From Strongyloides papillosus (lineage: Eukaryota > Nematoda > Chromadorea > Rhabditida > Strongyloididae): DNA of 64,000 bases. Position numbers and translations under genes: made by a program. A model generated the notes under the pieces. That model saw nothing but the letters and a program-made list of their open reading frames with translations. It did not search any database and was not told the DNA's origin. The stretch lies in NCBI GenBank assembly GCA_005656395.1, contig SRSI01000014.1:558001-622000 (forward strand), read 5' to 3'. Positions 6,764 to 27,900 of this stretch are shown here, piece after piece (within the stretch, counting starts at the first letter, position 1; every line of letters starts with the position of its first letter).

Positions 6764-8235
6764 ATGCTAAAAACTCTCGCTATTTTTCTTTGCATTATTC
6801 TTTTTTCGCAAATTCAACCGGTATGTTTATATTTTTTATAAATTAATATAGAATTTTAAGTGGCCAGTATTCGGTGGAAAAAATTTTTTTGCTGATGACC
6901 AAAATGGTAAAAGTGTAACAAAAAGTGCTTTGAAAACTCTAGATGAACTTTTACGCAGAATTAAAGGATTTTACTCAATTATAAATAAACCTTTAGACTA
7001 CTTTAAAGAAGGCAAGATAAACACCACTAGTAAGACTTTCAGAGACAATGATGTTATCGAAAATTCCGGTCTTTTCGATGGTGATATAAAGCTTTCAAAA
7101 AAGCAAGCAGAATATTTAATTGACACTGTTGCCGATGTAGCCGAAGAGTTAGGCGCTAATGTATCCGATGTTATTGGCGATTCAGAAACTAGAGAAAAGA
7201 GAAAAATAGATACAAGATTTGATTATGAGTGGGAGCTTACAATTCCATATATTATTAATGCCGGTGTTGATAAGAATTTAGTTAGAGAGGCTTTGAAAAA
7301 ACTTGAAAGTGAAACATGTCTCAGAATTCAAGAACATAAAGTTTTCTCACGAGGTGAAGCCGGTCTAAAATACTTTCCTGGTGATGGATGTTATAGTAGT
7401 CTTGGTAGACAATCTCTTAATGAATTACAAGAAATAAGTATTGGTCCTGGTTGTAATTTTATTCCAACTATTCAACACGAAACTATGCATGTACTTGGAT
7501 TCACTCATGAACAATCAAGAGCAGATAGAGATAAATATTTACAAATTCTTATAAACAATGTTAAAGACTTTGCAATAGAAAATTTCCTGAAATTACAATT
7601 AACAGATGCCTTAGATTATGGTTTACCATATGATTATGGATCTGCAATGAATTATAATTCATATTCATTTAGTAAAAATGGTGAACCTACGATGTTGCCA
7701 TATAACCCACTATATCAAATGACAATGGGTTCTAAGTCAGAAGCTACTTTTTTGAACATCATGGTGTTAAATCTCTATTACTGCGAGGATATTTGTTTAA
7801 ATAGAATTTCTTGTAAAAATAATGGATATCAAAATCCCAACTCTTAGAGCGTTGTAAGTGCATTAAAGGTTTTACCGGTGACAATTGCTCTAAAATCGAA
7901 AGAAATAGTCTATGCGAAAATCAAGAATTATTTGCTGATGGTACTCGAAAACTTTTATATGTAGACGGAGAAAACGATTGTGTTTACCACATAAAATCTA
8001 ATAGAAATAGAAAAATTTTTATGTTAAAACAACATCTATATATTCTAGTCATCCGCATAGTTGTCGCGCTGATAACAAACTTGAGGTCAAGTTTCAATCA
8101 AACAAAACCACGAGCGGAGGATTTCTTTGTAAAAAAGCGACTCAACAGTCTATGTCAGAAAACGATCATGTAATGATACGTTTTACAAGTACACAATTTG
8201 ATAATTTTGCTGAAATATATTACAAAATACAATAG
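6764..8235 (+). pseudogene. Astacin-like zinc metalloprotease (M12A), frameshifted after the catalytic domain
   Basis: Exon 1 (6764-6820) encodes a signal peptide, MLKTLAIFLCIILFSQIQP. A GT...AG intron at 6821-6851 (31 nt, ends ATAG) keeps the frame into exon 2, which is open from 6852 to a TAG at 7845. The propeptide ends near EKRK, then the catalytic domain begins. The zinc site HETMHVLGFTHEQSR lies at 7476-7520 (HExxHxxGFxHE plus SRxDRD). The Met-turn SAMNY is at 7641-7655, with Asn where most family members have His; the Tyr ligand is kept. After the stop, an EGF-like Cys pattern continues in a second frame from 7841 and the rest of a CUB-like domain in a third frame from 8035 to TAG 8233-8235. 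The order signal-pro-astacin-EGF-CUB is usual for nematode astacins, expanded in Strongyloides and linked to tissue migration. It is either a young pseudogene truncated after the catalytic domain, or an intact gene with two assembly indels. Confidence 0.85.
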
Positions 8236-8519
8236 AAATAAAATTCGACAGAAATGTCACTGTCATCTAACTTATTAGTTGATTAATTAATAAACTAATA
8301 ACAAAAATTGATATAATTTATAAAAAAAATCTTTATATTGTTGTTAGATGATAATTTTAATAAATATTCTAATTATTGTTTTATAAATAGCATCATATTT
8401 TTTTAATAAATTATGTCTCATGCAAGAATCTAACAAAGACTAATAAAATAACATTTAAAAAACGTTGTAACAGAAAAAATTTATTAAAATTTTAAAATAA
8501 GGTTGTTTTATTGGTCCTC
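8236..8519. other. AT-rich spacer after the astacin
   Basis: No coding signal. An AATAAA (about 8237) directly follows the last astacin stop and could be its poly(A) signal. Confidence 0.4.
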
Positions 8520-8559
8520 GTGACCTCTAGTTATTTAAATTGCAAATTTATTTCACACC

Positions 8560-8817
8560 AAAAACCTTAATTACAATAATAATAGTAATAATAATAAAGA
8601 CATTAAATTACTTCCTACTTCTCGTGGAGGTTTATCTAATATTAGTACGTTAGTAAACAACTTAACACTAAAGCCTAAAATTATAAATTTTAGTACAAGT
8701 TAAAAACCATCCTCATGATGACATAAGATTTGATACATTATATGCCCCTATTCTTGATGACACATTTACAGCCAACGTGGCGAGCACGTTTTACTCAAAC
8801 AAAGGTTTTAGTTATTG
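8560..8817 (+). pseudogene. Coding relic, family unknown
   Basis: Two protein-like stretches follow each other in different frames. The first is Asn-rich then LPTSRGGLSNISTLVNNL (about 8560-8700). The second is HPHDDIRFDTLYAPILDD followed by FTANVASTFYSNKGFSY and a TGA at about 8817. The composition differs from the AT-rich flanks. An intron or a frameshift near 8700 would join them. I do not recognise the family. It may be the 3' end of a dead neighbour of the astacin. Confidence 0.3.
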
Positions 8818-9480
8818 ACTACTTTTTATATATCACAATCAAAACACAATTTTCTAAAATTTAGTAACAGTTGTTTTATGAACTAAGTTTACTTTATAAT
8901 GAAAAAAAGCATGATACAAAATATGTTTCGGAGTTTTTATCAAAAATTAATAATATTTTTTAGTAATATAAAATAAAAACTATTTATTTAAAAATTTTAT
9001 TATTGATTCACTAATATTTCTGATAACCATAAACTTTATTTAAATCGTAATTTTATTTGATATAAAGGTTCATTGTATGATGAAGAAATGTTATAAAAAT
9101 CAGTCAAATATGATTTCTTTGTTATTATTAAACATATTTAAATATAGTAAATTTCTTTTTACTTATTAGAAAGTCTTTAATATCCATCTATGAATAAAAC
9201 TAAATCATAATCTTAAAATGAATATTGTAAATACATTTTTCTTGAATAATTGGATTTCAAAAAATTAACTACTTGTTTAATGTTAACTAATACATTTTTT
9301 TAAATATAAAAACAAAAAGGTTAATCAAATAGACCTGAATATTTTTAAATAAGTGATAATATCTGCACACAATTCATATAATTCAAAGCATTTAATGAAT
9401 TGATATACAACTATTCCTTTATATGCTGTAAGATTTTATCTATATTAAAAAAAGTATGTAAAATTTGTTTTCTTTTCAAT
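8818..9480. other. AT-rich DNA, nothing recognised
   Basis: Only homopolymer-rich AT sequence. Confidence 0.5.
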
Positions 9481-9806
9481 TCTCTTTTCTAATACCCTGT
9501 AATGTCACCAATTATCATAACAAACAATATTCTTCCTAATATTTCTGCAAGAAAGTGTCAATCCATTTTCAAATCTGATACAGAAGAATATTTTTTTCTT
9601 CATTGTATATTCAACTTTGTTTTAATTTTGTAGAGTTCTTTAATTATTATAGAAGTGTTTTTATAATGTAATTCACAATCAATTTTTGTTACATTTAAAA
9701 ATCTATAAATATAAGCATGAATTATATTATTATTAGCATTTAACAGGGATGAAGTAACAGTGCCCCACCAATTTTTATTCTTTTCCAAAATACATTTCAC
9801 ATGATA
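9481..9806 (-). pseudogene. Minus-strand coding relic, family uncertain
   Basis: Two protein-like minus-strand stretches adjoin. The upstream one (9800-9600) has 66 codons and includes CILEKNKNWWGTVTSSLL. The downstream one (about 9606-9490) includes HFLAEILGRILFVMIIGDI, with a TGA where a Trp codon would fit just before it. The second vaguely resembles the fourth membrane segment of Cys-loop ion channels, but this is not secure. There is at least one stop, so I call it a relic. Confidence 0.25.
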
Positions 9807-10907
9807 TTTTATATTATTTTTATAATGTTATGTTGGTTTTTGACTTCGACATAGTTCCTCAAAAGCAATTAAGACATTTTAACGTCCTTGATTTAAGCTT
9901 TAATATTATTTAGTTTTTTTACTAGTGTTCAAAAAATATTCATCTTTTTTTAATCAATAATGTAAACATTTTGAAAAAGATTGAGAAATATAATTAAATC
10001 ACAATTTCTTTTATCAGAATACATTTGATTTAGGTTCTTTTAATGTTAAATCAAACATAGCATTAATTTAAAACTTTGAGTATCAACTATTTATAATAAT
10101 TAAATAGATAAATAGTATAAAAATTTTCTTAGATTAAATAATTTTTTGATGTCAATAAATTATCATTCTCTGACAAAATTTAATTTGTTGATTGATATAA
10201 TGTCCATATGTAGAAAAAAGTAATAATACATAATAAATACTAGATAATTTTCTATTAAACTCTTTTATTATCAATTTCATATTCTAGTAGTTTCCTATAA
10301 ATAACACTTTTAAATTAAATTCGTATATTTTTTAAAATATAAAATATATTCGAGGAAACTACATTTTCACGTGATATTGATTAATAACATAAGTTTCATT
10401 TAATGTTTACCCATTTTGCTTTACCATTTGTATACAAATTCCCATATATAGATAGAAATATTTTATTGATTTTTCCATGTAAATATGAAAAACATTCATT
10501 AGTTAAATTAATAATTTTCCCTAAAAATTTAGTTTTACTCTCGTAGAATATTTGTAAATAATTAGCATAACTTATAGTACTTATATTTTGTATTTAATCA
10601 AAATATCTAAACGTTTTTTATTTATAAGCATTTTCTATATGATTTTGAAATTTTTGTACAATCGTTTACATAACCTGGACACATTTTTGAAACTATTCTA
10701 GAAAAATAACAATTTTTAAATTTACAGATTCATTCAGTTCTTGAGAATTAAAAATTTCTTTCATAGGATCAATTTTTCTTCTAAAATATTTTATGGTATT
10801 TTTTGTATTGATTAAAATTTTTAAAATTTTTCTAAAAATCCACTTCGAAATGATCATAAGTGAATTTATTGTATATAATCATAAAGAAAGATTCTTAAGC
10901 AACTATA
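9807..10907. other. AT-rich DNA up to the retrotransposon
   Basis: Nothing recognised. Ends with the ATTT (10908-10911) that serves as the left target-site duplication. Confidence 0.5.
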
Positions 10908-10911
10908 ATTT

Positions 10912-11068
10912 TGTTGCCCACCCAGAGGGTGTGGCAGAAAGAAGGAAGAGATATTATAAATAAAATAATATTCTGTTAGTTAGTTGTTAGTTATGTTATA
11001 TTAATCAGTTGTCGTATTATTAAATAAATATTTTAAATAACCTACCTCTGCATCATGGGGCCATTACA
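10912..11068 (+). repeat. 5' LTR (157 bp)
   Basis: TG...CA ends. It differs from the 3' LTR by one substitution (GGCAGAAAG against GGCTGAAAG) and one 1-nt length change in the TATATA region (GATATTATAAATA against GATATATATAAATA). The TATAAATAAAATAA block may combine a TATA box with poly(A) signals. Confidence 0.95.
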
Positions 11069-11086
11069 TGGAGGTTCCACAAGATC
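11069..11086 (+). other. Primer-binding site
   Basis: TGGAGGTTCCACAAGATC begins at the first base after the LTR and starts with the TGG expected to pair with a tRNA CCA end. I cannot name the tRNA. Confidence 0.7.
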
Positions 11087-11103
11087 CAACCGTTAGGTTG
11101 GAT
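11084..11103 (+). other. Hairpin next to the primer-binding site
   Basis: ATCCAACC-GTTA-GGTTGGAT is a perfect 8-bp stem with a 4-nt loop overlapping the end of the primer-binding site. A role in priming, dimerisation or packaging is inference. Confidence 0.5.
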
Positions 11104-11787
11104 TCGGTGGGTTAAAATACGTTTTTTAAGGAATATTCCTGTTATGAACATTCATATATAGATATAGATTGTAAGTTATATTAATAGGAAATAAGTTCTT
11201 AAAAGAAAATTGATCCAAAACGAAAAATGTTTGAGAGAGGTGATTAATTATCATAGATTAAGGATCAATCAGTTAAATTACTTGTTGTAAAGTATAAGAA
11301 TGCTATAAAATCACGTAGGCATTGTAACATAACTTAATTTAATGATGAATAGATTTTCGTAGTAATAAGTAGTAACTAATAGTAGTTATTTAATCTATTC
11401 AAATGGCACCATTAATTAATAGATTTAGTAGGCGTATTAAGATAGTAGAAGGAGGTAAATAAACGACAACACATAAAAGATAAGAATTTATAAAAATTAA
11501 ACCTCACTCTCTCAACTTCTGATTTGAAGGTAGTTATATATATAATTATCTTTATTAGAATTGTTAATGTACTAGTTGAATTAACATTGAACTTTCTGAA
11601 TTGAAGTTAGCTGTTACAACTAACTTCATCGAATTGATAATTTGTTTAATCAAGTTAGTACTGATTCCTTTGAATTGTCAATCGTATCCGATTTGACTAC
11701 TGATTTTGCCAATTCAATTTTGGACTGGTAATTGATTTCTTGACTTTAGTTAATTTCTTGGAGGTTAACTTATTGAATAAGTCAGTA
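11104..11787 (+). other. Retrotransposon 5' untranslated leader
   Basis: About 680 nt between the primer-binding site and the first gag ATG. No long open frame. Short AACTTC/GAATTG-type repeats occur at 11575-11720. Likely carries packaging signals, but none can be identified by eye. Confidence 0.5.
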
Positions 11788-13062
11788 ATGGCTAATCAAC
11801 CTGCTCCCTTCGCTTTTCAACAAGGCGAAGAGACCGTCGAAATCTTTCTTGGTGCTTACGAAGCAGCCAAAAAGAGATGGGCTGATCAGCAAAAGGCTCT
11901 TTCACGGAGACCTAATATACTGCAACTTATAGGACAGCTTTAGTCAATAAACAGACTGAAGAGCTCCGAAGAATGTTAAGCTTCTATAACATAAGTGAAC
12001 GAACCACTTATGATGTACCCTACGAATGGAAGACACCACTGTTAACCCGAGGTTAGAGGGCATAACAAAAGTGGTTTGCAAGTATCTTCATGAAAGTAAG
12101 AACTACAAACCATTCCTTAAGGAGTGATGTCGACTTCTATAATTAGAAGACTGATGTCATGAACACCATAAAGATTTTGGTAGTAGACGAGGAAGGATTT
12201 AAGATGGCGGATGTACTTTGTATGTCCATGCTTAATATCTTCATACCGAGGGAAAGTGAGATTCATCTCTATCTCCAGAAGGCTCTTAGAAGTAGGGTAG
12301 ATAGGGATGGGAAACTCCGTAATGGACTTTTAATTACTGACTTGTTTGATGAGATCTGGCAAGAGCTCAGAAATTCACAGGTTAGTAAGAAAGTACAAGT
12401 CCTTGCGAAGCCTCCTACCTGGAAGTATGGGGTAGATACCCTTATGAAGTTTAATATTCGTTATTTTGGATACCTGAGACAAAGATTGGGTGTTCAGAAT
12501 GTCAGTGCTCATCTTGATCAGAATGTAGCCTTAAGAAAGGAGTATTACTTGAATTATCAAGATCTTATTCCCATGGCTATTAGGAAAGAGGTCAGATATG
12601 ATGTAACTGCTGATACAGCATGGGATGATTTTATAGCTCTGCATTTGAATGCTGAATCTACTCTTAAGATCCTTGAGGATCAAGAGACGAAGCAGAAGAG
12701 AGCTACTGAAAAGGTCAAAACCAAAGTCGAAAGGAAATAATAATTTTCCTAAGAGTAACAACTTTAAAAAGTTTAAAAAGAGGTTTAATAATAAGCGAAA
12801 AGTTGTTAATCATGGAAATCAGTCAGAGAATAATAATAGTAGAAACTATAATAATAGTAATGCTACTAACCATTATAATAAAAATTATAATAATAATAAC
12901 AAACCACCAGGTGGAAATGGTTATAAAAATAATAAATATCCCAAAAAGGGAAATTCCTATCAAAAATATAATAACCAAGGAAAACCGGGCATCAAGAAGC
13001 CACAGGTTAATTCCATCGACGTCGATAGTATAACAAATAATGTTTTTCAAAGGGTAAAAGAC
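11788..13062 (+). pseudogene. gag-like region, interrupted
   Basis: The first ATG (11788) opens a 51-codon frame (MANQPAPFAFQQGEE...) that stops at 11941. Protein-like sequence continues in another frame from about 11919 and runs to 12740 with three in-frame stops at 12054, 12063 and 12144; the part from 12159 is a clean 193-codon frame. A third frame overlaps from 12649 and continues as a very basic Lys/Asn/Gly-rich tail. Position after the leader, a helical capsid-like middle and a basic tail identify it as gag. The tail has no CCHC zinc knuckle, so nucleic-acid binding would rest on charge alone. The breaks could be decay or assembly errors. Programmed +1 shifting at the 12649-12740 overlap is possible but unproven. 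Confidence 0.7.
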
Positions 13063-18647
<5,585 letters not shown>

Positions 18648-18748
18648 TTGAAAAAAAAGAAAACAACACAAAATATATATAAAAAAGTTTTTATTATGAA
18701 TTAGCAAAACCAAAAAATAAAAAAAATAATAAAAGGAATTAATGAGGA
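18648..18748. terminator. Convergent 3' ends of pol and the antisense gene
   Basis: Only about 100 bp separate the pol stop (18647) from the stop of the minus-strand frame (18749). Both strands carry AATAAA-type poly(A) signals here (plus strand near 18716; minus strand near 18691-18686). Confidence 0.5.
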
Positions 18749-19907
18749 TTATTCATCCGCGGTCTTCGGATTCTTGGATGATAAGGCCTTCATTTCTTCT
18801 TTTATTGTAGAAGGAAGCTCAGTTGAGCATATTTTGGTGAGAATATTCTCATTTCTATAGTAAATCTTAGCAGAATAATGGAAACGTGGATTCTGTTTTC
18901 TTGCTTTTTTTGCCCTTCCTACATCGGCAAAATAAGTGTTGTTATTTTCGTGATCAGGAACTATTGAGAGTTCTCTGATGAAGATTTTCTTAAAGGAGAA
19001 TTGTAACACTTGCATCCTTGCTTATTCATGCAGATCACTGCTTGCAGGGTTTTCATGTTGGGAATTAATTTCTATAAGTTCTTGAAGACTTCACAGCTAT
19101 CTGTCAGAAGTATTTTCAATTTTGTTACCCCCATAAATAGTTCTTTCCAATTGACATTAATGGATCCTTTGAAATCTTCTAAGCCCAAAAATTTCAGCTT
19201 AGGAGGAAGACTTCCACTAATGGCGCCTCCACGATAGACTATTAATAACTCTTTCCAATTTGGAATCTTCATTGAAGGAAAAGAGGCACCAAGAGGAATT
19301 TGAAGCACAACACCATTAAAATGGTTTGGTGGATCTTCACTATAGATCTTGAGTAGAGAATTGGTTTTGGAGACAACTCCATAATTGATATACTTTGGTA
19401 CACCATGTTGAGAATGAGCGGATGGAGTAATTTGATCTCTCCATTTGTCCATTTTGTCAGCTTTGACAAGACGATTGTAAATCCCGAATGATTTCGACGA
19501 CATTAGACAACAATAGGATATGTTCTTAGATGGCATGCGACCTAATGCCCCTAACAACATAAAAGATTCTAATGATCTATTGTTGGTTTCTAATTGTCGA
19601 GCGAATTCTTCGATAGGACATGGTGCTTCTCTCTTTTTGCTTCCTTTTCCGACGGAGGGTACTATGGATAATTGTAATATAAGTATCTTTTTAACTTACC
19701 TTTTGGAGGATCATCAGGTTTTGTATCACCAATATCAGTTGGTTTAGTAATATCTCTGCTATTATCATCTAGCAAGCTTTCGTCGTTAGGATTAATATCT
19801 TTAATCATCGTTAGAATGGCGAGAACGAAGAAATAGTCGGGATTAAATAAGCCACTATCTTGAAGGGGGGATAGCAGGCACGAAAAATTCGATAGTAAAT
19901 CAAGATA
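18749..19907 (-). CDS. Antisense spliced gene B inside the retrotransposon, unknown function
   Basis: Reading the minus strand, an exon begins after a TCCAG acceptor (first base 19907) and is open to a GTAAGT donor (exon end 19700). A 38-nt intron (19699-19662, ends CCATAG) restores the same frame, which then runs to a TAG at 19072. Protein-like sequence without the intron would be interrupted. The first in-frame ATG is at 19808, but clearly protein-like sequence upstream suggests an earlier exon. The product (roughly 265 codons) has an acidic/Pro linker, a basic GKGSKKR patch and then a globular-looking region with GVVLQIPLGASFPSMKIPNW. A further 88-codon frame (19015-18749), Lys-rich with a KKARK patch, follows in another frame and probably belongs to it through an intron or a frameshift. 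No signal peptide or membrane segment. I do not recognise the family. Confidence 0.65.
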
Positions 19908-20948
19908 CTGGATTATTTAATGACCATAATTGTTAAGTTCTGTTCAATAAACGGATTGTAAAACTTAGTTTGAAGAAAGAATTCTGGTTTATGGAGATTA
20001 ATTTGTTAGTTGTAAAAGGAATTTAATATGAATTGTTGTTATTTTATTAAAGCAGAATTGTTAATTGCTGTAGGATGAAAAGAAATGTTTGATGTATCAA
20101 AGATCAAATGCCAGAATAAGTTTCAAATTGTTATTCAAGACTATTATTATTAAGAGTATAATTGGTTATTATTATGATTTTATGCTAAGATGGAAGAATA
20201 TTCACATTTTATATCAAATATCAATTGATGTTGCAATTTATATCAAAAATCTGGAACATTCACATACTAATGGAACTCAAGAAACATCTATTTCAATTTT
20301 TACTTTGTCAGAACAGTGAGAAGACGTTTCAACTACAATCAGGCAACTATTAACGTATGGATGGTATGAAATGGTAAACAGAGAAGATTTAATTACACTA
20401 TACATGGATTCAACGTAACTTTAACAAGAAAATATTTTACTGCTATTCAAATATATTATGTTCAAATTATTTATTAAAATCTGTTACAAGTAGTTTTCAA
20501 AACCGTAAACCATTTTGTGAGATATTTTGTGAAGAAACATAGCAAGATGTATTTACAAGACATATTTATGGTTTTACTATATTAATTCTTCAATTCATAG
20601 TGCTTATGGAAATAATTACATATTGTTACTGGAGAATTCTGCATAAAGTTGTCGAAGATTCTATCATTCATAATGTTCAATTTTCAAATCCGTTAACAGC
20701 TTAATAAAAGAATGCTGCAGTTGAAAGGAAGAAACATTCTATAAAAGTACAAGAGATTTCAATATTAATACAAACAAAGGATTTTATTATAATTATATCT
20801 TTATTAAGTAAAGAATGATAAAACAAGAAGTGAAATAATGACATTTCATTAAGTGAAATGTTCAAAATGAAAAAAAAGCCCCTTTAGGAGGGAGTCAATA
20901 AAACGTAAAGAGATGAGATAAAATTATGGATATTAGAAAATTTTTAAG
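19908..20948 (-). other. Region between the two antisense genes
   Basis: No long frame on either strand. The minus strand has several short protein-like frames that could be exons, including one near 20421-20280 (MYSVIKSSLFTISYHPYVNS...) and one near 20670-20585 (MNDRIFDNFMQNS...), with usable acceptors nearby (CATCCTACAG near 20068, CAACTGCAG near 20715). Minus-strand AATAAA signals at about 20804 and 20784 could end gene A. The plus-strand frame at 20089-20319 looks like a shadow. Confidence 0.35.
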
Positions 20949-21599
20949 TCATACAATCCTGTCGAATGGTATTGATGCAATACCGATGTTCGGTGGAATT
21001 GATGTTCTCGAGTTGGAACTCCTACTGCTAGAACCACCATAGATGTTTTGAAGGAAGTATTGATTCTCTTCATCCTCCCCATTGTTTGATTTGAATAAAT
21101 CCATGTTCTTAATTTTTGCAGCGATAAAAGTTATTGCAAGGAGAAGACAGAATAAGGCAATGAGGCCCAATAAATAAACGGCGGCCCTCATGATCTCTTG
21201 AAGAAGAGTCCCTAAGGGGAATGAGAAGGCATGCTGTGAAATTGTGCAATTCATATCCAAGAATGCTTGACAATTAAGTGAACACCATTCAGAGTCCATC
21301 GTTATGCTATAAGAATAAAAAAAGATAATATTAAATAAAGGAATTCAGTAGATAAAACTTACATTAGTTGAACACTGGTGATATTAAAAAAATACTCCGT
21401 AGTAGTTAATGACTATTGTAAGAAAAGTCAAATGGTAGTTTTATTTTTTTTGCTGCTCTTAAATACTTGTGATTTTGCAATAATTGTTTTTTATCGATAA
21501 AAGAAAAACACAGTAAAACAATTGTCATCTGTAAAAAAAGAATATAAAAGAAAAGATAATACGATTTACCAATGTAAAAGAATTTTTTTTTACAATCAT
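20949..21599 (-). CDS. Antisense spliced gene A: small membrane protein next to the 3' LTR
   Basis: On the minus strand an ATG at 21599 opens a 30-nt exon (to 21570). A 41-nt intron (21569-21529, GTAAAT to TTTTTTTACAG) joins it in frame to a hydrophobic exon, together a signal peptide ending about LMTIVLLCFSFID. A later exon ends at 21363 before GTAAGT, and a 56-nt intron (21362-21307, ends TTCTTATAG) joins it in frame to the last exon, open to the stop at 20949. That exon has a short Cys-containing ectodomain (WCSLNC, MNCT with an N-glycosylation site), a strong membrane span (YLLGLIALFCLLLAITFIAA) and a 60-residue Ser/Asn-rich tail. How the signal exon connects to the ectodomain is unclear: the frame from 21528 stops at 21406, but a weak GTATTT donor with the acceptor at about 21383 would give a continuous frame. 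No family recognised; it resembles a viral accessory or envelope-stub protein only in layout. Confidence 0.6.
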
Positions 21600-21781
21600 G
21601 GGAAAGAATGGACAAAATGTTAAAATCAAATGATAAAAGGTTAACACAGACAATTTAGTGAAACATGATAAAAAAAAATATCGATAACAAGTACTAAGGT
21701 ATTATCAGTAATACCTGTGGTTAAAAGAACTTTGAAATAAAGGAATAAGGAAATACTCTTAAAGGAAATTACAATTTCCTT
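21600..21781. other. 3' non-coding part of the retrotransposon
   Basis: AT-rich, no gene. If gene A has its own promoter it should lie here or in the 3' LTR on the minus strand; no element can be singled out by eye. Confidence 0.4.
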
Positions 21782-21790
21782 AAAGGGGGA
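21782..21790 (+). other. Polypurine tract
   Basis: AAAGGGGGA lies immediately before the 3' LTR, the expected primer site for plus-strand DNA synthesis. Confidence 0.85.
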
Positions 21791-21948
21791 TGTTGCCCAC
21801 CCAGAGGGTGTGGCTGAAAGAAGGAAGAGATATATATAAATAAAATAATATTCTGTTAGTTAGTTGTTAGTTATGTTATATTAATCAGTTGTCGTATTAT
21901 TAAATAAATATTTTAAATAACCTACCTCTGCATCATGGGGCCATTACA
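21791..21948 (+). repeat. 3' LTR (158 bp)
   Basis: Matches the 5' LTR except for one substitution and one 1-nt indel, which points to a recent insertion. Followed by the ATTT target duplication at 21949-21952. Confidence 0.95.
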
Positions 21949-21952
21949 ATTT

Positions 21953-24900
21953 AGTTAAAAGTTTGCAAACATTAAATGCATTATAATTGAAGATTATTCT
22001 ATTTAAATTATAATATCCCATAATATATATTAATAGATATGCTTATAAAATTGATTATATGCTTCTGTTGTATATTTGTAAGATAAATAAAATAACCTGT
22101 TGGTAACATTATCTAATGATATGTATAATTTCATAATTTTTTTAAACTCATATAATGATTTATAGATTTTTTTATTGTTGTAACTTTTTGACCTTGTATA
22201 TGTTTTAAATCTTTGAAAGAATCAAACTTCTCCAACAAGAATCTATCATATGATTTATGGAATATGGTACATCTTTTGATTTTATTGTCAAACAAATTCA
22301 TTTTTATTAGAAAGGTATTCAAATAGTTATCATAATAGTAAAGTAAGATATTTTCATTACAACATTTATTCTATTTATGATATAATTCTGAAAAAATCAA
22401 CGTTTTTTAAACATGTTGTTTATAATTATCATAGTGTGATAATTCAATATATAAATATCGTACGTGTTAACATACACTTAATTTGAAATATAAATTTCAT
22501 TCTATCGTTACTTTTATACAATTATTGTATTTTACTGTGCTTTAAGTTTAAGACCAGTTTAGATAAATTTTAACCAATTGCATATTTTTTGATAATTGAA
22601 ACACGTTTCTTGAGAAATTTTAGCGATTTTAAATGTGAAAGGCGGTCAAAAATCTAATAACTGCTTTTTTTACGCTTAAGCAATGTCTTCAAATAACATA
22701 AAACCACATAAAAATATCAGCTTCATATTTCCACTTTGTGCGTTTTGTTGCTTCTGAAAATTTTCGACCATGATTGCATATTTCAAAAATTACTTTATGA
22801 AACTATGTATATTAAATATCATTCTACCCAATTTTTTACGTATTTTCTATGTATCAATATGCACTTTGAATACCACGTGTTCGCTAATTAAAAATCATTA
22901 TTATTAATTACACAGTACATATATATTTAAAAAATTATTCAAATTACTAAATCTATATTCTTAATTCAATACGTGGAAAATTGTTGGGAATTTCTGTGTA
23001 AACATCTTCAAAACACGATTATACATAAGAGTAAGTAAAAAAGTATACCTAAAAAATAAAAATTTAAATAAATTGTTTTATATTTGAAAGCGGCGTCTTT
23101 CATCTATATTACCATAAAATGTTACAGAGTTTCCATTTGTGATAATAGAATAGACGATAAAGAAATATGATTAAAGATATTTAAAGTTAGTAATGTGTTA
23201 AATAAAAATAATAATAAGGAAGAAGACGAATAGTAAAATAGATTGGGAATAGGAGAAATTTACCATTTTGTATTTAGAAAAGTTAACAATAAACATTATA
23301 GTATTAAATACAGTGTCACACTTACCTTAACAAGCTTTCTATATGCTTGATGTACATGAACTTTTATCCCTTATATAATGAACAAATAATTTACTATATA
23401 ATAAAAGTTATATGTAAGGTGAATAAAATCACTAATATAATTTACATGTACAGTAAAAATCAAAAATGATTTGTGTGCAATTTTTTAGAACTTAATATAC
23501 ATTGTAGACTTAGATTCAAACTTATACCGTTTTTTAAAGCTTGAACTAAAAAAAGAGCAAATGGATCGTTCAAGCAGTTTCTTCAACACCATGATATCCC
23601 AAAAATTATGATATTTTAAACTACACCATAAAACAGTTACCAACGATTTAATTAATAATACCTTAGGAGTAAGAAATTAATCAATTGCATGATAAGTAAA
23701 AAATGTAGTAAAGTATCCTTTCAAAAAAAGGTTATTACTCCTCTCAAGAAAACGATCAAAAATGAGACTTGAAAAAACTTCAGCTGAATATTACATTTTT
23801 TTAAAATTAAGCTTTAAGCTTTTATAACAATGAAGCTTCTTTCAATCTATAAAACTGTAGTGTTAGAATTTTAAAAAGATAAATTTATCCTTCTGATATT
23901 AATAGTCCTTCCTACTTTTTTGTTCTATCAAAAGTACTTGTTCTTTATACTAACCTTTAGTTCATTCAAACTAGAAATTATGAATTCCTAATTAGTTAAT
24001 AAGAATTTGAAATGACAAAAACTGGATATATTCGAAATTCCACCCTTAGAGTTTTGTGAGTGATATGTTTGTTTTTAAGATTATTTTATGTGAAGAGAAG
24101 TGTTTCAATTACAGCCTAGTTTCTATTGTTATTGTTTGTGACTTTTGAAAAAAGTTTCTAAGTCATTTTAAGATATTCATAAGCAGGGAAAACAATCTAT
24201 TATGATGTTCTACCCATATATTAATAAATATAAGATTTAAATTTATTATTGACAAATGGCTATTAATAATGATTGAAAAAGTACATCAAATTAAGCAATT
24301 TTTTTTCTATAATTCATATCGCTGACATATTCTTTCTCCTTCTTTCCAAACTATCGTTGTAAAATCTTAGAAACAATTATCTAAATTAAAAGTTATTTCA
24401 AAACTTATTAAAAACTTACTTTTTTATGAAAATATAAATGCATATGTTGGAAATATTAAAGATATTATATTTTCTGAAAAAAATCAAAAAATACTGTGTG
24501 TTACCAATGAAAAACATAGTGTAATATTAAACAATTGACTTAGTGGAAGAAAATAATCATTCAATGAGAGGTTATTTTTTCATTGATTTAGTGAATTGCA
24601 TTGCATAATTTTGCCACGTATTTTTTAAAAATGAATTACAATATTACGTCAAATAAACGTGATAAAGAAGATTTCTTATTTGAAAATTACCATTCAATAA
24701 ATTTAAGGTTTCTTTTATCTTTAAACTACGGCTTAGTGCTAAAACTGGTAATTTAAGTATAAATTTATATAAACATTAAAATAATACCATGTTAAATGTT
24801 TACTATTTTCAAAAAGTATAACTATAATATTCTAAACTTTATTTAGTAAAAAAATTCCTAGCACAAGATCTTTTTTAAAAAAATCGGAAAATTTAATGCA

Positions 24901-27900
24901 TACTTTCTATAAAAAACTTAAAAAATCATGTAGAATTTATGAATTTAAAATTGTTCTTTTTGTCGATTGCAACTTTTTAAAACTTGAGTACATTAGAAAC
25001 TAAAAATTAAAAAATTCTGAATTTTAATACATGGAATAAATTTAACTAAATTGTATTCAGAAATCTGTAATCTTATTGGAGTTCTTACAAAATTATTGAA
25101 ATTAATTAAATTGCATGAATAACTATATTTATTTAAGTTGTATAATTGGGTAATACTCTTAATACTTCATATTTTTGTATTTTTATAAAATTTTAAAATA
25201 AATATATTTATACTATTTTCGTTATTGCAGCCTTTTTTGATTTTTAATTAATGCCAAATAATAATATTATTGATAACAAAGGAAATGTTTCGAAGTTAAG
25301 GATATAAAAAAAGAGATTGAATAAGTATACCATTTGTATTATTAATAACATTTTATAGCAGAAACTGTATTAAATTTTTTCATTTTATTTTTAATTTCAT
25401 CTTGGTTAACGAAAATATTTATTTGGCTTTATCTAACCAGGCAACGGTCATGTATCTACGTGGCTTTATTTAGCCTTTCAGCTCATTTTACTTGGAATTT
25501 TTCAAGTAAAAGCTGTAACTTTTTTTAGTTTAAAACTTGATTAATTAAAAATCAATTTCTACAACTTTATATTTCCATACTATTCCGAAGTTAAACTTTT
25601 CAAATGATTTACAAAACATCGTATCTTATCTATTTTCAAATAACGTTATTTATATTCATAACTATGCTCTAAGAAGTGAAAAAATTTTTTATCCTAGTTA
25701 AAAATAAATTAACTAATCAAAGTTTAAAATTTATAAAAATCATTTTTTTTTCTCAAGTTCGTAAAAACACATTTTTGGCGATTTGCTTATAAAAAAAAGT
25801 TATGTTCAAAAAATGTTATGAGGAAGACAATTTCTGTTTCTTTTTTTCTTATAAGTTTAATAATTATGAAACACTTACTTACATCAAGAATTTTTTTAAT
25901 GCTAGTAAAAAATCAAGATTAAAAACAACATTTCTAAACAAAACAATGTATATTCTAAATAAGAATCAAACATATTATCAATATAAAAACAAATGTCAAT
26001 ATTTTTATTTTTAATAAATGATAGTGGTTTTCAAATTGCTAATCAGCTCAAAATGCAAGTAATTTTGCATATTCCGGAAGACTTAATAAAATATAATAAA
26101 CAATATTACTGAAAACACTGTATTAGCTTCATTACAAATCTCAAATCTTATAAACTGCAATAATTTTAGTGGTAAAATTAGTTTAGTTTAAGTACTTTTC
26201 AGGAACAATTTAATATATTTTAAAAATATTTGAATGTCTTTATAGAAAATTTGATTAATGTGCTTACTAAAAATTAATACTTTTGATTTAATTATTAAAT
26301 TGAATAATAAAAAAATTAAACAGTAATTTAAATTAATTTATAGTGCATGTTAGCAGGAAAAATTCAGTGCCATATTAGTCAGATGTTATTTATAATTTAA
26401 GCTACAACTTTAAGTGAATTTGGTTGTTAAATTGATACAAAAAAAAACTAAATAAGTTAAGTAAAACAATCAAAATTAAATATGAAACCTGATTTTTTGA
26501 TTTACTACAAACTATTGATTATTAATCATTACATAAGTTATTAGAGAAATAGCTTTAGTATCATTCTTAATTATATGTAGATATTATTTTTTTAAACAAA
26601 ATAGTTGTTTTTAAACAGTGTATATATTTAAAGACTTGGATTATTTCTAGCAAATATCATTAGTGATTTTTTGATGTTGATTTTCATTTTGAATAAATAA
26701 AATAATCAATATTATTTTTACTTTACAACAATGTTCAAACAATTCGTATTTTTTCAGTTATTCTTATAGCAAGAGATATTAGTTATATATAACCTTCTTA
26801 ATAGCTGATAAAATATTTCTTGTTTCAACATTTTTTTTTTATAAATAAATGTTGAGAAAAAACTTTCACTTCACAATTGTTTAATAGTTGCTTTAAATGA
26901 TAAGTTTAATGTGAAAATAATTTTTTAAAATAATTAAAAGTTGTAATGAGTTTGAAATATTAAAATAAATTATTTTCTTTCGACTTATAAAAAAGTTTTT
27001 TGCATTCGAAGGGCTATTATATGTGCATAATCTAATAAGGTAATTAAAATGTACATTTTTTATAAATTGTGGTGTATAGTAATGTGGTAATAAGTTTAAT
27101 ACAGTATTTGTATTTAAAATATAATTTAACACAATGATGGAAAAGATTACTTAAAAACAGTATAGCAACGACATTTTTACGAGATTTTTTTATATGAATA
27201 TAATTTAATATGAATAAAAATAATAAATTTGCTTTCAGTTGAGAAAACAAAATGTTTAGACAACTGAAATTTAGAGAATACAAATAATAATAGGAGATGG
27301 TGAACATTAGTCCATCGCAAAAATTTATGTCGCACGAGGCAATAACGTGCGAAATTTATAAAGTAAAAAAGTAATTTTTTTATAAACATTGAAATAGAAA
27401 TATCTATATAATTAAATAATTATATAAGTATTTATGAATAAAAAAAAATAATTTGTAAAAATGTTTTTATTTATCCTTATACGGGGGCTAGATTACGGCA
27501 GTGCCAGTCAAAAAGAGGCCACAGGTCATGCCTTATCAATAAATGGATAAAAATAATGTGCTTTTTCCAAAAAACCATAGAAATTCACTTAAAAACACAA
27601 ATACTGCACAAAAAAATTACTACAAATGATTCAAAATATATTTATTTACTATTCTTCATTCTTAAGATACCTCTTATCCTAAAAAAATCGCGCTAAATAA
27701 CAACTTTTAGCTGAACTGTTAATCAAATACCTTTGAAATTTGTTTATTGTAAAAATTACGCGGCAAAAATTAAGTAGCGGCGCGATTGGCTATATAGCCA
27801 TTAGACTAATGTCCCTATTCTCAAAAATAGTATATAAATTATTAATTACTAGTTCATAATAAAAAATTTAGGCTTGCAACAATAAAACCATAGTAAAATT

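What the first reader, a model, noticed from the sequence alone, without database searches (positions are those of the whole stretch)
18749..21599. Spliced genes on the antisense strand inside a retrotransposon
Seen: between pol and the polypurine tract, about 3.1 kb carries minus-strand coding sequence with at least three in-frame GT...AG introns (38 nt at 19699-19662, 41 nt at 21569-21529, 56 nt at 21362-21307). One product looks like a small signal-peptide plus membrane protein, the other like a larger soluble protein convergent with pol. Known: antisense genes exist in some retroviruses (HBZ of HTLV-1) and antisense ORFs are reported in some plant LTR elements. Inference: introns in the antisense direction escape removal when the sense genomic RNA is packaged, so an LTR element can carry a spliced accessory operon this way. 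Alternatives are capture of a host gene pair or insertion of another element in reverse.
Basis: partly seen in the sequence, partly recalled or inferred. Interest (0 to 1): 0.87.

Follow-up and report, generated by a model that had tools for sequence, protein, structure and literature searches.

The report
Backwards spliced genes in worm retrotransposons
A family of retrovirus-like jumping genes in a parasitic roundworm carries extra genes written on the opposite strand, one of them with a small intron, which may let the element keep an intron through its RNA copying cycle.

Summary
The finding is largely real. The window holds a Ty3/gypsy element (157/158-nt LTRs, 4-nt target duplication) in a Strongyloides genome, S. 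papillosus or a close sibling. Between pol and the 3' LTR, on the minus strand, lie two coding regions under purifying selection. asA is a ~360-400 aa protein (acidic start, basic motif, LRR-like core, Cys-rich tail; dN/dS 0.13-0.21 against independent copies). asB is a 116-aa membrane-type ORF (0.14). Of 26 asA loci examined, 20 sit convergently next to pol and 6 have no pol in the flank. asA lies inside the LTRs of two young elements with uninterrupted gag-pol. The 38-nt intron is supported: a 36-43 nt GTAAGT...YAG phase-1 intron occurs at the same place in 5 of 15 loci scanned, from four pol lineages (≤0.3% of shuffles each). Corrections: asA is broken here (stop plus frameshift); the 41- and 56-nt introns do not join asB into one product; C43 is the same insertion, not a second copy. 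No RNA data were available. Antisense accessory genes are known in plant and fungal elements and in HTLV. My searches found none in an animal LTR retrotransposon, nor a conserved intron in one. New variant of a known kind.

The parts
10912..11068 (+). 5' LTR (157 nt, TG...CA), preceded by target-site copy ATTT
   Evidence: matches the 3' LTR with one substitution and one indel; same 4-nt ATTT on both outer sides
11069..11087 (+). primer-binding-site-like sequence TGGAGGTTCCACAAGATCC
   Evidence: a near-identical sequence follows the 5' LTR in the C42 and C3 elements; the tRNA was not identified
12147..14883 (+). gag region, split into frames 12147-12740, 12649-13194 and 13372-14883 in this copy
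   Evidence: 10 of 36 scored relatives have an uninterrupted frame of 2,152-2,379 aa
14811..18647 (+). pol frame: protease, RT, RNase H, integrase, in Ty3/gypsy order
   Evidence: Pfam RVT_1, RT_RNaseH, rve, Integrase_H2C2, Asp_protease_2
19700..19808 (-). asA exon 1: acidic N-terminus (MIKDINPNDESLLDD...)
   Evidence: comparable acidic stretch in other families; poorly conserved in C9 (48% DNA identity)
19662..19699 (-). asA intron, 38 nt, GTAAGT...CATAG, phase 1
19072..19661 (-). asA exon 2: basic motif (GKGSKKR) and LRR-like core; frame ends at a stop in this copy
   Evidence: (dN/dS 0.14-0.21 against C9, C12:959k, C12:978k; 0.35 against C12:987k)
18749..19021 (-). asA C-terminal part, out of frame with exon 2 in this copy, continuous in several relatives
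   Evidence: dN/dS 0.13-0.15 against C9, C12:959k, C12:987k
20949..21299 (-). asB: 116-aa ORF with one strong hydrophobic segment
   Evidence: dN/dS 0.143 vs C9, 105 codons; hydropathy 2.86; codon-position changes 12/5/36; C9's copy has a 1-nt deletion near its start
21307..21362 (-). candidate leader intron of asB, 56 nt
   Evidence: weaker donor in C9
21529..21569 (-). candidate leader intron, 41 nt, identical in C9
21782..21790 (+). polypurine tract AAAGGGGGA
   Evidence: read by eye
21791..21948 (+). 3' LTR (158 nt), followed by target-site copy ATTT

Best explanation
A clade of Strongyloides Ty3/gypsy retrotransposons carries an accessory cassette on the antisense strand between pol and the 3' LTR. 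Its main gene, asA, encodes an acidic - basic (NLS-like) - LRR-like - Cys-rich protein. In several lineages its mRNA needs removal of a ~40-nt phase-1 intron. A second small gene encodes a membrane-type protein. Shown by sequence: position inside LTRs, conservation across families and two species, purifying selection, intron conservation, and exchange of the cassette between elements with nearly identical pol. Inferred: the genes are transcribed antisense from near the 3' LTR by host Pol II and spliced. The intron persists because the sense genomic RNA that is reverse-transcribed carries it in a form the spliceosome does not recognise. asA acts in the nucleus as a regulator of the element, working like HTLV HBZ or the Cer1 CERV protein (expression or export of genomic RNA), through protein contacts of its LRR-like core.
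Against: No RNA or protein data. Near-identical pairs show weak constraint: dN/dS 0.63 (L033/L034), 0.49 (L021/L023), and 0.57 and 1.30 (window/C43). Only 9 of 26 loci have one open frame over 85% or more of the asA profile, and these are the nine that made the profile. Ten of the 15 loci scanned show no such intron. asA is broken in the window, and is reduced to its ends in C14:216k although that element's gag-pol is uninterrupted. Elements with pol identity near 46-53% sampled (5: L054, L055, L056, L063, L064) show no asA. Foldseek gives no match at E <= 0.001; no Pfam hit reaches its cut-off for asA. Nuclear action rests only on a basic motif read by eye. The second model had mean pLDDT 54.
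Confidence: 0.6

Rival explanations
1. The cassette encodes real antisense proteins, but their job is particle egress or an envelope-like step, not nuclear regulation: small membrane-type proteins with short tails, one type ending in PPPYSV (a PPxY late-domain-like motif; motif name from recall), with asA as a partner.
For: asB is under purifying selection (0.143). The ORF ending PPPYSV is conserved between the C3 and C14 elements, dN/dS 0.223 over 83 codons. ORFs with hydrophobic segments occupy the same place in C42 and C12:946k.
Against: The ORFs of the asB, C42 and C3 types share no detectable similarity; hydrophobic frames are common by chance in AT-rich DNA; L037 has no PPPYSV ORF in the 1 kb listed.
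Confidence: 0.2
2. The antisense transcript itself is what matters (double-stranded RNA or small-RNA control); the protein-coding potential is residual.
For: Antisense promoters with possible non-coding roles are known (PMC7264820, part 2 of the text); in S. ratti, small RNAs antisense to gypsy elements are predicted (PMC9203780, passages).
Against: dN/dS of 0.13-0.21 and third-position bias in the antisense frames; 350-404 aa open frames.
Confidence: 0.1
3. Capture of a host gene pair in reverse, or insertion of another mobile element.
For: An LRR-like protein could come from a host gene; the presence of introns would fit a captured genomic piece.
Against: Of 26 asA loci, 20 sit next to pol in one fixed orientation; the other 6 have no pol within about 1.5 kb, and none of those 6 has a full open asA frame. 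Protein searches returned 8 proteins, all Strongyloides (candidates capped). No repeat of 40 nt or more other than the LTRs in window 8000-26000. An ancient capture cannot be excluded as the ultimate origin.
Confidence: 0.08
4. Open frames and splice-like sites by chance in AT-rich DNA.
For: The three GT...AG segments were chosen by eye; AT content of the 3' regions is 62-69%.
Against: Shuffle tests for frames and intron, family conservation, purifying selection.
Confidence: 0.02

Closest known systems
Antisense additional ORFs (aORF-3R) of plant Ty3/gypsy elements Grande, RIRE2, Retand, and fungal Boty
   Same: Extra ORF between pol and 3' LTR, antisense to gag-pol, in most copies, conserved like element proteins; Grande's product is nuclear and has its own promoter (PMC7264820, parts 1 and 2 of 3 read; PMC11963269, passages).
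   Different: Host is an animal; the protein has an LRR-like core without a Pfam match; a short phase-1 intron is conserved across lineages; a second membrane-type gene is present. The word 'intron' does not occur in the main text of PMC11963269.
HBZ of HTLV-1 and related antisense retroviral genes
   Same: Antisense gene at the 3' end of a reverse-transcribing element, spliced mRNA (recalled; PMC10186651 seen only in a search listing).
   Different: No bZIP or other Pfam match above cut-off; the intron lies inside the coding region next to the basic motif; no evidence on an LTR antisense promoter.
CERV of Cer1, a C. elegans Ty3/gypsy element
   Same: Nematode element of the same superfamily; accessory nuclear protein from a spliced mRNA, with a basic motif and Cys-rich loop; required for genomic-RNA export (PMC10309623, abstract and sections 9 and 15; PMC3315495, passages).
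   Different: CERV is sense-strand and shares its N-terminus with GAG, so Cer1 must leave some RNA unspliced; asA is antisense and avoids that conflict. No sequence comparison was made here.
Bdelloid rotifer LTR elements with captured ORF3
   Same: Animal LTR elements with an extra gene beyond pol, expressed from spliced messages (PMC5408684, passages).
   Different: The passages seen do not describe antisense ORF3 genes; the ORF3 types they name are env, DEDDy, GDSL, CC and TM.

Membership tests
Ty3/gypsy LTR retrotransposon (Metaviridae) | LTRs with TG...CA ends, short target duplication, PBS and PPT | tested here: met
   (PBS by position and conservation, PPT by eye)
Ty3/gypsy LTR retrotransposon (Metaviridae) | pol order protease - RT - RNase H - integrase | tested here: met
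Antisense aORF-3R class (Grande, RIRE2, Retand, Boty) | ORF antisense to gag-pol between pol and 3' LTR | tested here: met
Antisense aORF-3R class (Grande, RIRE2, Retand, Boty) | Present in most copies of a family and conserved like element proteins | tested here: inconclusive
   homologous and selected in the loci examined, but copies were found by searching with asA, many are decayed, and sampled elements with pol near 46-53% lack it
Antisense aORF-3R class (Grande, RIRE2, Retand, Boty) | Antisense transcription from its own promoter (shown for Grande) | not testable with these tools
   no RNA data held
Retand TRP28 (PF04195) antisense proteins | TRP28 domain | tested here: not met
   no PF04195 match among the asA proteins scanned at E <= 1 or E <= 10
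HBZ-type antisense retroviral gene | bZIP domain protein | tested here: not met
   no bZIP match among the proteins scanned
HBZ-type antisense retroviral gene | Antisense mRNA initiated in the 3' LTR and spliced | not testable with these tools
   splice sites present; transcripts not available
Leucine-rich-repeat protein (asA) | LRR solenoid fold | tested here: inconclusive
CERV (Cer1 export factor) | Sequence or fold relation to CERV H, M, G domains | not tested

The most novel reading that the evidence does not exclude
Animal LTR retrotransposons evolved an exchangeable two-gene antisense cassette (a spliced LRR-like regulator plus a membrane protein, in some families with a PPxY tail). Coding on the antisense strand removes the conflict between splicing accessory mRNAs and packaging unspliced genomic RNA, so an ordinary spliceosomal intron has been inherited through many rounds of reverse transcription. 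The cassette is swapped between elements with nearly identical pol.
Probability: 0.4. Interest if true: 0.85.

Novelty: new variant of a known kind. Interest (0 to 1): 0.72.

Why it matters
Retroelements that splice accessory mRNAs from the sense strand must export unspliced genomic RNA against host controls (Rev, CERV). Placing the spliced gene on the other strand avoids this. A conserved intron in an antisense element gene would be a natural record of that solution, and it can be tested directly with S. papillosus RNA-seq. It also offers a case for how accessory genes are gained, diversified and swapped between elements.

Tried and rejected
Host-gene capture as a recent event: not favoured, because no intact stand-alone homologue was seen among the 26 loci examined. 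F-box reading of the asA N-terminus, suggested by public names such as 'F-box' and 'FBD domain-containing' on P0001, P0005 and P0006: no Pfam F-box match in the 10 proteins scanned at E <= 10, so dropped. asA in deeper elements: none detected 3-3.5 kb downstream of pol in L054, L055, L056, L063 or L064. L056 and L063 have other antisense frames; L062 (downstream of a 68% pol) holds a different element. Reading C43 as a second independent copy was abandoned: same flanks (99.5-99.8%) and same TSD. The second model (window exon 2) had mean pLDDT 54 and was not searched. Literature: ten searches for an antisense or spliced antisense gene in nematode or other animal LTR elements. None was described in the listings or in the passages opened. 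PMC8220671 (annelid LTR elements) came up three times; its passages mention antisense ORFs only as background. Most listed papers were not opened, and subscription papers are not covered. Rfam and tRNA scans of the window found nothing.

Full report
WHAT THE WINDOW IS. The window is part of a 58.2-Mb genome held as G000. Its asA relatives match public proteins of Strongyloides papillosus: P0005 at 100% over 82% of L037, P0004 to L028 at 95%, P0001 to L023 at 94% over its main piece, P0003 to L021 at 91-96%. The published S. papillosus assembly is 61 Mb (PMC10676819, passages). I take the organism to be S. papillosus or a very close sibling.

THE ELEMENT. A Ty3/gypsy element runs from 10912 to 21948. 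Its LTRs are 157 and 158 nt with TG...CA ends and differ by one substitution and one indel. Both outer sides carry ATTT. A primer-binding-like sequence follows the 5' LTR. The pol frame 14811-18647 has protease, RT, RNase H and integrase in that order. The gag region of this copy is split into several frames, while 10 of 36 scored relatives have an uninterrupted frame of 2,152-2,379 aa (36 scored of 663 candidates). Outside Strongyloides the best pol matches among the 120 listed (of 331) are Caenorhabditis japonica at 32-33%.

THE ANTISENSE GENES. asA: acidic exon 1 (from ATG 19808), a 38-nt intron, then exon 2 with a basic motif and an LRR-like core. In this copy the frame stops at 19072, and the C-terminal part is out of frame, so the protein is broken; in C12:987k, C42, C3, C35 and others it is one open frame. 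Over 26 loci, 9 have one open frame covering at least 85% of the asA profile; these are the same nine from which the profile was made. C43 and C9 have frame changes of their own. asB: a 116-aa ORF from ATG 21299 with one strong hydrophobic segment; C9's copy has a 1-nt deletion near the start.

FAMILY EVIDENCE. tblastn of asA exon 2 on the own genome gave 37 matches, from 100% down to 25% identity; a more distant query gave 32. I examined the 30 loci cut out, which are 26 distinct places; further matches were not examined. Of the 26, 20 have pol next to asA in convergent orientation, 6 have no pol in the 1.5-kb flank, and none has another arrangement. Two young elements with uninterrupted gag-pol frames were bounded: C42 (149-nt identical LTRs, TSD ATTT) and C3 (identical LTRs of about 99 nt, TSD TTAC); asA lies inside both. 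Three of the six loci without pol (C12:978k, C55, C6:1331k) have a match to the end of the 5' LTR and primer site beside asA, suggesting deletion derivatives. A homologue at 58% exists in S. venezuelensis. Distances of asA and of the integrase end correlate (Mantel r 0.71, 0 of 5000 permutations, n=10). Absence: L054, L055, L056, L063 and L064, downstream of pol frames at 46-53%, show no asA by tblastn or profile.

SELECTION. Between the window and the independent copies C9, C12:959k and C12:978k, asA exon 2 has dN/dS 0.144, 0.190 and 0.214; against the recombinant C12:987k it is 0.345. The asA C-terminus has 0.150 (C9), 0.127 (C12:959k) and 0.150 (C12:987k). asB vs C9 has 0.143. Pol C-terminus has 0.125 (C9), 0.236 (C12:959k, 64 codons) and 0.108 (C12:987k). 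Changes fall on third positions: asB 12/5/36, asA exon 2 13/11/34, C-terminus 8/8/24. Against this, near-identical pairs have 0.63 (L033/L034), 0.49 (L021/L023), and 0.57 and 1.30 (window/C43). I read that as decay after insertion, but weaker constraint than on pol is also possible (integrase end of L033/L034: 0.17). Pairs window/C6 and window/C55, L034/L037 and L037/L038 were saturated at synonymous sites and gave no ratio; L020/L024 gave 0.27 at dS 1.84.

THE INTRON. A mechanical scan of 15 loci found a GTAAGT...YAG intron opening onto the main asA frame in five: window 38 nt, C42 (L021) 36, C14:492k (L029) 36, C12:946k (L020) 43, C14:205k (L024) 41. All five are phase 1 and upstream of a basic motif. 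L021 and L029 belong to one pol lineage, so four lineages are represented (tree). In 1000 shuffles of each junction, phase-1 introns of this kind arose 0, 2, 1, 0 and 3 times. In C9 and C43 it is 37 nt. Ten of 15 showed none: in L034, L037 and L038 the acidic start and the basic motif lie in one open frame, L018 and L026 gave only other candidates, and L022, L023, L025, L027 and L032 gave nothing. C12:987k has lost the donor. The public S. papillosus model P0003 is joined as this junction predicts. That annotation drew on RNA-seq and other evidence (PMC10676819 passage), but I saw no reads.

CASSETTE EXCHANGE. L034 and L037 are 95-99% identical in DNA to the end of pol and then 51-69% over asA, with integrase dS 0.07 against saturated asA synonymous sites (pS 0.756). 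C9 vs window also changes after pol. C12:987k vs window breaks inside asA. So the antisense region seems to be swapped between elements, as template switching could do (inference); very fast divergence is the alternative.

SECOND GENE. Elsewhere the place of asB is taken by other ORFs with hydrophobic segments: C42 (L058:629-1027), C12:946k (L020:513-743), and a type ending PPPYSV in C3, C59 and C14:216k. The last type has dN/dS 0.223 over 83 codons, C3 vs C14. The asB, C42 and C3 types share no detectable similarity.

MECHANISM, STEP BY STEP. Shown: gene position, conservation, selection, intron. Inferred: antisense transcription and splicing; persistence of the intron because the sense RNA shows only its complement; nuclear action of asA; asB at a membrane. 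The nearest working parallel is CERV of Cer1, a spliced nuclear factor needed for genomic RNA export (PMC10309623). The difference is that CERV is made from the sense strand and must leave some RNA unspliced.

KNOWN OR NEW. Antisense ORFs in this position are known from plants and fungi with unknown function (PMC7264820, PMC11963269). Ten searches did not show one in an animal LTR retrotransposon, nor one with a conserved intron, in what I saw of their results. Hence: new variant of a known kind.

Noticed in passing
window 10912-21948 and G000:C43 about 268350-279400: The C43 copy shares insertion site and TSD with the window copy. Flanks are 99.5-99.8% identical and C43's own LTRs identical, yet internal DNA is only 96.6-98.9% identical: possible in-place gene conversion or cDNA recombination.
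   Followed up: partly
L061 (G000:C14:216400-219900): An element with an uninterrupted gag-pol frame has asA reduced to its two ends, but keeps the ORF ending PPPYSV.
   Followed up: partly
L012, L014, L016 (C12:978k, C55, C6:1331k): asA beside a match to the 5' LTR end and primer site, without pol in the flank: probable deletion derivatives that kept part of the antisense gene.
   Followed up: partly
L056 (C56) and L063 (C27): More distant elements (pol about 50% and 47%) have unrelated antisense frames downstream of pol: an acidic 149-aa frame and a 93-aa frame with a hydrophobic segment.
   Followed up: no
L034, L037, L058, L020 and window asB: Five of 11 antisense start codons shown lie 5-35 nt after a pyrimidine-rich acceptor-like site, as in trans-spliced or leader-spliced nematode mRNAs (read by eye).
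   Followed up: no
window 6852-7847 (+): 331-aa open frame with an astacin-type HExxHxxGFxHE motif (motif recognised from recall), outside the element.
   Followed up: no
window 13080-13194 (+): A signal-peptide-like hydrophobic stretch inside the split gag region (by eye).
   Followed up: no
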